Origin: Diacronema lutheri
Lineage: Eukaryota > Haptophyta > Pavlovophyceae > Pavlovales > Pavlovaceae
Assembly (NCBI GenBank): GCA_019448385.1
Contig: JAGTXO010000023.1
Span: forward strand, 62,001 to 126,000
Length of the DNA: 64,000 bases
Reading direction: 5' to 3'
Positions 5,114-49,270 of the stretch are shown piece after piece (position 1 is the first letter of the stretch; every line of letters begins with the position of its first letter). The translations under genes and the position numbers were made by a program. The notes below the pieces were generated by a model. The model was not told the origin of the DNA, ran no database searches, and saw nothing but the letters and a program-made list of their open reading frames with translations.

Positions 5114-5434
5114 GCGGCGCGGGCGAGCGCGAGGCAATGGCGCGGGCGCATGCGCGCGCGCGTGTGCGGTGGCGGGGATGGGCGCAGGCAAGGAGAGGGT
5201 GAGACTGCGGGTGGGCCGTGTAGCGCGTGACTGTGGGCTGAGGCGGGGCGCCAGAGGGGAGGGGCGGCAGCCGGCAGGGCGAGGCTGTGGCAAAACAACG
5301 AGCGAGGAAAGAGTCTCAAAAAGACGTGGAAGCGGCTGAATTTGAGAAGTCGTCCTGACGTTAGTAAGATAAGCGCCGTTAGTATTTGAGAAGTCGGCCC
5401 TTCATCGCAGTTTCCATTTTCCTCTCGCCCGACG
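5114..5434. other. intergenic with small inserted repeat
   Basis: This gap of 321 bases lies between the TBC gene stop and the start of the secreted protein gene. It becomes AT-richer after 5280. The only structure seen is the 32-bp insertion at 5353-5384 with its flanking 12-bp direct repeats, listed separately. It ends about 38 bp before the next ATG, so it lies in the probable promoter or 5' leader. Confidence 0.45.
5353..5384 (+). mobile_element. 5'-truncated short interspersed repeat, 32-bp copy
   Basis: The 32 bp carry the 3' end shared with two longer copies at 28324-28403 and 49139-49234: TCCTGACGT, a short variable stretch, then AGCGCCGTTAGTA. The copy is flanked by the 12-bp direct repeat TTTGAGAAGTCG at 5341-5352 and 5385-5396, which reads as a target-site duplication. 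Relative to the other copies it has about 9 extra bases inside and lacks everything 5' of the TCCTGACG core. A shared 3' end with variable 5' truncation suggests target-primed reverse transcription, as for SINEs and LINEs; there is no poly(A) tail. Confidence 0.55.
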
Positions 5435-6139
5435 ATGGCGCACCATCGTCTACTCGCCGCCTGCGTGGTCCTGTGCGGGACGCTGGCTTTGAGCAGCGCT
5501 GCGAAGGAGGAGGAATGCACGCCTCCCACGGTCGCGCAAATCAACCAGAAAGTGGCCGCCTTCCTCCAGAAGCTCGAGTCGATCGAGCACGAGCCCCCGA
5601 TGAGGCGGTCGATCATGAATCACGCCGTGTGCAGCAAGCTCAACCCAAAGGAAAAGTTCGGGCCAGGCAAGGGCAAGGGCAGGGGCGGGGGGAAAGGGCA
5701 GAAGGACGACGGCCCAAACGTGTGCATGGACAAGGACGCCATCGGCGCGGCCGTCGCCGCGTGTGCGCAGCCTGACGCCGCGTCGAGCTGCTCAGGCGAC
5801 ATGTCGACCCTTCGTTCGGAGATGGGCAAGCTGTGCGCCGCGCTCACCGAGCTCGAGTGCACGCCCGCCTTCTGCTCGAGCCTTACCGTCAGTGGCGAGG
5901 CGACGGCCACACCCACGCCAACCAGCACGGTGATGAGTAGCTCGCACAGCCGCCACGGCCGCGGCCAGCACCTGCAGGCCGCGTCGCAGCCGCTTCGCCT
6001 CATCGACTCGTCGCGCGTCGCCGAGGCGCGCGCGGGCGCGACCGTCGCGCTCGCCGTGTGCGCCGGCCTCGTCGTGCTCGGCTTGGCCCTCGTCCGGATG
6101 CGTCGTTCGCCGCGCGATGACTCGCTCCCGCTCGCGTAG
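5435..6139 (+). CDS. secreted/type I membrane cysteine-containing protein, unknown function
   Basis: This single-exon gene encodes 234 residues. It starts with a clear signal peptide (MAHHRLLAACVVLCGTLALSSA, cleavage after about residue 23). An ectodomain with scattered cysteines follows, with a Gly/Lys-rich loop (GKGKGRGGGKG) at about 75-90 and a Thr/Pro/Ser stretch at about 155-170. A single membrane span lies at about 203-222 (VALAVCAGLVVLGLALV), with a short basic tail after it. The topology suggests a cell-surface or endomembrane protein with its Cys-rich part in the lumen. I recognise no family. Confidence 0.65.
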   Translation: MAHHRLLAACVVLCGTLALSSAAKEEECTPPTVAQINQKVAAFLQKLESIEHEPPMRRSIMNHAVCSKLNPKEKFGPGKGKGRGGGKGQKDDGPNVCMDKDAIGAAVAACAQPDAASSCSGDMSTLRSEMGKLCAALTELECTPAFCSSLTVSGEATATPTPTSTVMSSSHSRHGRGQHLQAASQPLRLIDSSRVAEARAGATVALAVCAGLVVLGLALVRMRRSPRDDSLPLA

Positions 6140-28281: not shown

Positions 28282-28323
28282 AGTGCGGTCGGTCGCCTCG
28301 GTCCTCCAATAGTAAATAGTAAT

Positions 28324-28403
28324 ACACTAACGGCGCTCACGTCAGGACAGCGGGGTCAGCACCAGCTGCGGGGGAATCGAGTAGCCACCAATGTCGTCGA
28401 TTC
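28324..28403 (-). mobile_element. 5'-truncated short interspersed repeat, 80-bp copy
   Basis: Read on the minus strand, this copy matches the element at 49139-49234 over its whole length with few differences: a GACGACATTGGTGGCTACTC core, then GCAGCTGGTGCTGACCCC, TCCTGACGTGAGCGCCGTTA and GTGT. It is flanked by the 13-bp direct repeat AGTAAATAGTAAT at 28311-28323 and 28404-28416. It is 16 bp shorter at the 5' end than the 96-bp copy. It lies about 40 bp upstream of the TIR-like gene's start codon. Confidence 0.75.
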
Positions 28404-28416
28404 AGTAAATAGTAAT

Positions 28417-48981: not shown

Positions 48982-49138
48982 GCCGTGCGCCGCGCATGCC
49001 GCACGGCCCTCCGTCGCACCGCCGCCCACGGATGGTGCCGAGGGCGCACCGGCGGCCACGCGCACCGGCGCGGCGGCGCCGGGTGGGGACTTGGGGAGCC
49101 GCCTGCCGCCCGCCCCTCGCCGAGCACAAAATAAAGAC

Positions 49139-49234
49139 GTGACCGGGATGCGCGGGGATCGACGACATTGGTGGCTACTCGATCCCCCGCAGCTGGTGCT
49201 GACCCCGGTGTCCTGACGTAAGCGCCGTTAGTAT
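49139..49234 (+). mobile_element. short interspersed repeat, 96-bp copy (longest)
   Basis: The element begins GTGACCGGGATGCG and ends TCCTGACGTAAGCGCCGTTA then GTAT. It is bracketed by the 13-bp direct repeat ACAAAATAAAGAC at 49126-49138 and 49235-49247. It shares 80 bp with the inverted copy at 28324-28403 and its 3' end with 5353-5384. It lies in the gap between the villin stop and the glycosyltransferase start, 36 bp before that ATG. Confidence 0.75.
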
Positions 49235-49270
49235 ACAAAATAAAGACATAAAATCGGCTGATGATTAACG

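What the first reader, a model, noticed from the sequence alone, without database searches (positions are those of the whole stretch)
5341..5396. Tiny retro-style repeat: shared 3' end, variable 5' truncation, 12-13 bp target duplications (copy 1 of 3)
Seen: the 32 bp at 5353-5384 share TCCTGACGT...AGCGCCGTTAGTA with the 80-bp copy at 28324-28403 and the 96-bp copy at 49139-49234. Each copy has its own perfect flanking direct repeat (TTTGAGAAGTCG, AGTAAATAGTAAT, ACAAAATAAAGAC). Known: a fixed 3' end, variable 5' end and 7-20 bp duplications are hallmarks of LINE-machinery target-primed insertion. Inference: this is a SINE-like family whose members can be as short as 32 bp and which lacks a poly(A) tail. 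The target flanks are all AT-rich for this genome, which suggests site choice.
Basis: partly seen in the sequence, partly recalled or inferred. Interest (0 to 1): 0.8.

Follow-up and report, generated by a model that had tools for sequence, protein, structure and literature searches.

The report
Crumbs of a TATA-seeking LINE retrotransposon
The three short repeats are severely 5'-cut copies of a LINE retrotransposon of a marine alga, which copies itself into AT-rich TATA-like spots, mostly outside coding DNA, and usually stops copying within about 100 letters, often near a hairpin close to its own end.

Summary
The three copies share a 3' end and each has a perfect 12-13 bp duplication. The assembly (43.49 Mb, 103 contigs) fits Diacronema lutheri. 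The tail GCGCCGTTAGTA occurs 259 times against 7 for the reversed control.

They are not an independent SINE but 5'-truncated ends of a ~4.65 kb LINE that carries the same 3' end about 2.6 kb after the start of its RT match. Its protein is nearest to R2 by sequence and Foldseek; motif and fold suggest a C-terminal restriction-like nuclease.

Of 50 copies taken in contig order, 41 measure under 100 nt (two of these are longer copies with internal deletions). Twelve 5' ends fall 69-82 nt from the 3' end, over the 5' arm of a predicted hairpin. Targets are AT-rich, with A at -2 (82%) and T at -1 (76%) of 38 sites, matching the element's terminal AT. Only 2 of 53 sites lie in coding-like DNA. Insertions reuse sites (9 of 29 same-locus pairs, 0 of 3045 between loci). 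Sister families share the tail (653 sites).

The parts
5341..5352 (+). target site duplication, left copy (TTTGAGAAGTCG), copy 1
   Evidence: identical to 5385-5396
5353..5384 (+). copy 1: extremely truncated LINE 3' end, 32 bp, with 9 extra bases (TAGTAAGAT) inside a 23-nt core; probably an RT jump or slip (inference). 50 bp upstream of an ATG at 5435 whose frame is open over the 155 codons read
5385..5396 (+). target site duplication, right copy, copy 1
28311..28323 (-). target site duplication (AGTAAATAGTAAT on + strand), copy 2, at the element's 3' end
28324..28403 (-). copy 2: 80-bp LINE 3' end; unbroken homology starts 77 nt before the end of the tail 12-mer, inside the 69-82 nt zone of frequent 5' ends
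28404..28416 (-). target site duplication, copy 2, at the element's 5' end
49126..49138 (+). target site duplication, left copy (ACAAAATAAAGAC), copy 3
49139..49234 (+). copy 3: 96-bp LINE 3' end holding the whole predicted terminal hairpin; 36 bp upstream of the ATG (49271) of a frame with a family 28 glycosyltransferase N-terminal domain
49235..49247 (+). target site duplication, right copy, copy 3

Best explanation
The three repeats are dead-on-arrival, 5'-truncated copies of one autonomous non-LTR retrotransposon (LINE 'A', about 4.65 kb, one long open frame seen) of the haptophyte Diacronema lutheri. Shown: fixed 3' end GTTAGTAT without poly(A), scattered 5' ends, private duplications (7-16 bp found, most often 12), an RT frame upstream of the same tail, AT-rich mostly non-coding targets, and repeated use of single sites. 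Inferred: an R2-like protein nicks one strand at a TATA-like site with its C-terminal nuclease; the freed 3' end pairs by 2-3 nt with the RNA's terminal (U)AU; the RT copies the RNA from its structured 3' end and mostly lets go within about 100 nt, often in the 5' arm of the terminal hairpin, where the new cDNA can fold back on itself; the other strand is cut some 12 bp away and repair leaves the duplication. Occasional jumps between RNAs give chimeras; copy 1's extra bases fit such a jump or slip.
For: Tail 259 sites vs 7 reversed control. Of the 6 RVT_1 hits on contigs C1-C34, 5 have the A 3' end about 2.6 kb after the RT match begins, on the same strand; so do the three at C71 and the one at C36: 9 of the 10 that my listings allow me to judge, the other 6 of 16 not judged. 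Full-length-like 5' boundary: 6 copies at 99-100% identity and one at 79% begin at query position 37-42. Exact flanking repeats of 8 bp or more: 22 of 55 copies, 0.28% with flanks re-paired at random. Length: 41 of 50 measure under 100 nt. Hot zone: 12 of 22 ends between 40 and 150 nt, P 3e-6 if uniform, 0.0002 for any 14-nt window; it overlaps the hairpin's 5' arm. Hairpin variants keep pairing. Target bases A -2 82%, T -1 76% of 38; GC 0.32 and 0.39 in the first 10 bp beside the element against about 0.70 from 100 bp out. Outside coding-like DNA in 51 of 53. Site reuse 9 of 29 vs 0 of 3045 pairs. R2 is the best PDB sequence match of the profile and fills the seven best Foldseek rows; R2 chains align through model residue ~1070, L1 chains stop at 756-842.
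Against: 33 of 55 copies show no exact repeat of 8 bp or more beside the computed 5' break; internal deletions, jumps and nesting misplace the break in part of these, but I did not resolve every case. By VIA-align Z, L1 chains rank above R2 (22.9 vs 20.1), so the clade is not fixed by fold, and that call warns that residues beyond 798 are barely tested. No Pfam model names the nuclease, and its motif is not among the invariant columns of the 11-sequence alignment. The hairpin fold is only modestly better than shuffles (z -1.83, 8 of 200 as good). Several raw lengths under 21 nt are copies with internal deletions or insertions or chimeras (L045, L046, L047, L048, L058, L086, L088, L090, L093; by eye), so truly tiny copies are fewer than the raw list. 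5' ends are uncertain by about 3 nt because of a GGGAATC variant and chance matches.
Confidence: 0.88

Rival explanations
1. A discrete short RNA (about 70-80 nt, cut or transcribed from the LINE 3' end) is mobilised in trans by the LINE, so the short copies form a nascent SINE family and are not failed LINE copies.
For: 12 of 50 copies end 69-82 nt from the 3' end and none at 60-68; 14-mers at about 33-46, 56-69 and 76-88 nt occur 248, 205 and 62 times, though the last misses a common GGGAATC variant.
Against: 5' ends are ragged: in 72 copies, 40 of them picked for lacking the longer 14-mer, 10 end at 77 nt and 5 each at 71, 72, 78 and 82; no sequence difference from the LINE end was seen by eye in the short copies; many copies are shorter or longer; no tRNA and no Rfam family in the window.
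Confidence: 0.1
2. A miniature DNA transposon or introner-like element with defined ends at both sides.
For: Short, dispersed, with target duplications.
Against: Only the 3' end is fixed; 5' ends run from about 14 nt to near full length; duplications vary from 7 to 16 bp (7 was the smallest looked for); an RT frame sits upstream of the same tail.
Confidence: 0.02
3. The AT-rich, non-coding distribution is mere survival after selection in a 73% GC gene-dense genome, not site choice.
For: Insertions in coding DNA would be lost; non-coding DNA is richer in AT, and a shoulder of lower GC reaches 60-100 bp from the sites.
Against: The AT dip is sharpest in the first 10-20 bp; single positions are strongly biased; the same site is hit repeatedly by families A, B1 and B2.
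Confidence: 0.1

Closest known systems
R2 non-LTR retrotransposons (PDB 8gh6, 9nl3, 9dou)
   Same: Best sequence-profile match (9nl3, E 3.9e-14) and best Foldseek match (8gh6, E 3.1e-15); alignment extends past the RT into the C-terminal part; structured 3' end instead of poly(A); template jumps (recalled for R2).
   Different: R2 inserts into 28S rRNA genes (start of abstract of PMC2718515 seen in a listing); this one goes to dispersed AT-rich sites with duplications of mostly 9-13 bp. Non-site-specific R2-like elements are reported in the cockroach (PMC7650587: title, start of abstract and passages seen).
LINE-1
   Different: No poly(A); no APE endonuclease domain found by Pfam in the frames scanned; copies far shorter.
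Stringent-type LINE/SINE tails (Ohshima 2013, PMC3747384, passages seen), including Chlamydomonas RandI/Dualen
   Same: Specific 3' end with stem-loop; other families share the tail.
   Different: All 8 green-algal RandI families in its table end in short repeats such as (ATT)n; here the end is a single GTTAGTAT.
Short internally deleted elements (SIDEs, PMC6740152, search listing and start of abstract seen)
   Same: Short derivatives of a LINE; a few copies here carry internal deletions.
   Different: Most copies here are 5' truncations that keep only the 3' end.

Membership tests
Non-LTR retrotransposon (LINE) | reverse transcriptase frame in the long copies | tested here: met
   RVT_1 E 1e-9, 16 genome matches
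Non-LTR retrotransposon (LINE) | fixed 3' end, variable 5' end | tested here: met
Non-LTR retrotransposon (LINE) | variable-length target duplications | tested here: met
   22 of 55 copies with 8 bp or more
R2 clade | RT nearest to R2 | tested here: inconclusive
   and Foldseek favour R2; VIA Z ranks L1 first; no tree made
R2 clade | C-terminal restriction-like endonuclease | tested here: inconclusive
   D912 and K927 of a D...(E/D)xK motif invariant in 3 sequences but not listed in the 11-sequence alignment; R2 chains align to residue ~1070; no Pfam hit; domain not folded alone
R2 clade | insertion in 28S rDNA | tested here: not met
   copies dispersed over many contigs, one just upstream of a glycosyltransferase frame; no rRNA found in the window
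R2 clade | N-terminal zinc fingers and Myb domain (recalled) | tested here: inconclusive
   no Pfam hit in the N-terminal 302 aa of the C11 frame, and RVT_1 alone in the frame of L075
SINE | own 5' head unrelated to the LINE | tested here: not met
   copies are nested LINE ends; no tRNA or Rfam match in the window
SINE | internal Pol III promoter | not tested
   no scan for A and B boxes was run
SINE | fixed 5' end | tested here: not met

The most novel reading that the evidence does not exclude
The terminal hairpin works as a built-in brake: nascent cDNA that has copied both arms snaps back and is released, so this LINE mostly emits 15-80 bp, duplication-flanked inserts into TATA-like sites upstream of genes. 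It would be a natural generator of micro-insertions in regulatory DNA, and the 69-82 nt class may be a SINE in the making.
Probability: 0.2. Interest if true: 0.7.

Novelty: new variant of a known kind. Interest (0 to 1): 0.45.

Why it matters
It shows that a LINE can leave traces of 15-80 bp, short enough to escape ordinary repeat annotation, some of them just upstream of genes. The hundreds of copies in one 43 Mb genome act as a run-off assay: they give the positions where reverse transcription ended, the base pairing used for priming and the nick-site preference. That makes two open questions, why LINE copies are truncated and how R2-like enzymes choose non-rDNA sites, testable with one purified protein.

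Tried and rejected
SINE with a tRNA or other known RNA head: ARAGORN and Rfam (gathering scores) gave nothing in the window. LINE with a Fanzor-like ORF1: a Cas12f1-like_TNB frame lies just upstream of the LINE at C27 and, weakly (E 0.003), at C11, but the C11 upstream DNA matches other places while LINE copies start at a constant boundary after it, so I dropped the idea. Tree of RT clades: not made. Copy-number fall between 69 and 88 nt by exact 14-mers (205 to 62) overstates the drop, because many longer copies carry GGGAATC; I therefore rely on the 50 copies taken in contig order. The sample L101-L140 was chosen for lacking that 14-mer and is not used for proportions. The Fisher test treats neighbouring control positions as independent, so its P is too small and I do not quote it. 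In one search the rule of taking the longest match favours T at -1 (not A at -2), and three rows (L046, L082, L096), whose base after GTTAGTA is not T, are shifted by one. L081's length (242) is capped by the stretch fetched. Papers: the listings (one search found none) showed no title or abstract start describing this family; I did not read those papers in full. The D. lutheri genome paper (PMC8379373, passages seen) gives LINEs only as 3.8% of masked bases. The library holds open-licence papers only.

Full report
Source. The window is C40:62001-126000 of a 43,492,796-base assembly in 103 contigs. Diacronema lutheri NIVA-4/92 has 43,502,671 bp in 103 contigs, 73.25% GC and a longest contig of 3.042 Mb (PMC8379373, passages seen); the longest contig seen here has 3,042,068 bases, and a search with the LINE alignment finds KFE25_013602 of D. 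lutheri at 99% identity over 32% of the first query sequence. The species is an inference from these matches.

Observation. All three copies and their perfect duplications are as stated, and the shared tail is well above chance in the window. Copy 1 is more complex than described: its 32 bp hold a 23-nt core plus 9 extra bases.

Family. The 12-mer tail occurs 125+134 times in the genome, the reversed control 5+2. I aligned 61 copies and the window to longer copies. The base after GTTAGTA is T in 97% of them, so the element ends GTTAGTAT. 5' ends scatter. For an even sample I used places 1-50 of the 259 in contig order (L037-L066, L081-L100): raw lengths are under 60 nt in 25, 60-68 in none, 69-82 in 12, 83-99 in 4, 100-149 in 1, 150-1400 in 6, and 1400 or more in 2 (L081 is capped at 242 by its stretch). 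So 41 of 50 measure under 100 nt. Raw lengths under 21 nt include copies with internal deletions or insertions (L046, L047, L048, L058, L090, L093) and probable chimeras (L045, L086, L088), as read by eye; L047 and L048 in truth exceed 100 nt. Clear tiny inserts with good duplications are copy 1, L063 (21 nt, 14 bp), L082 (24 nt, 14 bp), and a 15-16 bp insert of the sister family inside L049 between two copies of TAAAATTCACAT.

Partner LINE. RVT_1 rings at 16 places. Of the six on contigs C1-C34, five have the A 3' end about 2.6 kb after the RT match begins, on the same strand, and one (C5, a partial match) has none; the three at C71 and the one at C36 have it too. The remaining six could not be judged from lists that stop at 100 rows or a 14-mer that misses variants. 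At C27 the open frame runs to 258634 and the tail ends at 258782, so the 3' UTR is about 146 nt. Six copies at 99-100% identity and one at 79% begin at the same point within 5 bases, which with the C11 copy's 3' end gives about 4.65 kb; the boundary of the C11 copy itself is not shown, since it was the query.

Protein. The profile of 11 sequences matches R2 first (E 3.9e-14) and L1 weakly (best 0.005) in the PDB. The predicted model (mean pLDDT 73.9, pTM 0.72) gives R2 chains as the seven best Foldseek rows. By VIA-align, L1 has the highest Z (22.9, 586 residues, 4.4 A) and R2 follows (20.1, 728 residues, 6.2 A), but of the 50 rows shown only R2 alignments run past residue 842, to about 1070; the call warns that residues beyond 798 are barely tested. 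A D...(E/D)xK motif at 912-927 is kept in three sequences and is not among the invariant columns of the 11-sequence alignment; calling it a restriction-like nuclease rests on this, on the fold and on my recall of the motif.

Target. In 38 copies with a flanking repeat of 7 bp or more, the empty site shows A at -2 (82%), T at -1 (76%) and mostly A/T at 0 to +3. The A and T equal the last two bases of the element, so a 2-nt pairing between nicked target and RNA end is the natural reading. GC is 0.32 in the first 10 bases downstream and 0.39 upstream, with a shoulder, returning to about 0.70 within roughly 100 bases. By a rough GC3 and open-frame test, 2 of 53 sites fall in coding-like DNA against 53% of 1001 control positions in the same loci. 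Copies 1 and 3 lie 50 and 36 bp upstream of start codons; copy 2 lies about 520 bp before a frame with a glyceraldehyde 3-phosphate dehydrogenase.

Site reuse. Among 79 distinct junctions of families A and B, 9 of 29 pairs in the same locus and strand share at least 8 bases of target, at seven loci; none of 3045 pairs between loci do. Example: L037 carries three tails (B2, A, B1), each followed by TATAGTACG.

5' end zone. Between 40 and 150 nt, 12 of 22 ends fall in 69-82 nt (P 3e-6 if uniform; 0.0002 for any 14-nt window). The predicted hairpin's 5' arm lies about 72-86 nt from the end. The fold's z-score is only -1.83 (8 of 200 shuffles as good), but natural variants keep the pairing: of 22 copies read by a motif search, GGGGATCGA goes with TCGATTCCC in 8 (a G-U pair) and with TCGATCCCC in 5, GGGAATCGA with TCGATTCCC in 5; four others differ. 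The cDNA snap-back is my inference.

Sisters. GCGTCGTTAGTA occurs 653 times against 1 control, with at least two upstream sequences (B1, B2). Shared tails fit stringent 3' end recognition (PMC3747384, passages seen).

Verdict. A LINE with ordinary logic and an unusual output: mostly very short copies, a zone of frequent 5' ends at its own hairpin, and TATA-like, reused sites.

Noticed in passing
G000, genome-wide; e.g. C27:254647-254874, C40:153239-153478: About 150 scored (306 first-look) matches to Cas12f1-like_TNB (TnpB/Fanzor-type), many with a ~1015-aa open frame; six lie 670-860 bp from contig starts on the minus strand.
   Followed up: partly
G000:C71:996101-1011779: Three RT copies of the LINE in tandem, 7.5 kb apart, each with its 3' end: tandem duplication or concatemer.
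   Followed up: no
L088, L045, L037, L086: Apparent chimeric insertions joining A, B1 or B2 tails, as expected from RT template jumps; read by eye.
   Followed up: partly
L020 and L023 (C36, C29): The same insertion with the same flanks over ~870 bp at 99% identity: segmental duplication after insertion.
   Followed up: no
G000:C75:816615-816692 and C86:1024669-1025149: Diverged relatives of the LINE 5' region (79-87%), so older lineages exist.
   Followed up: no
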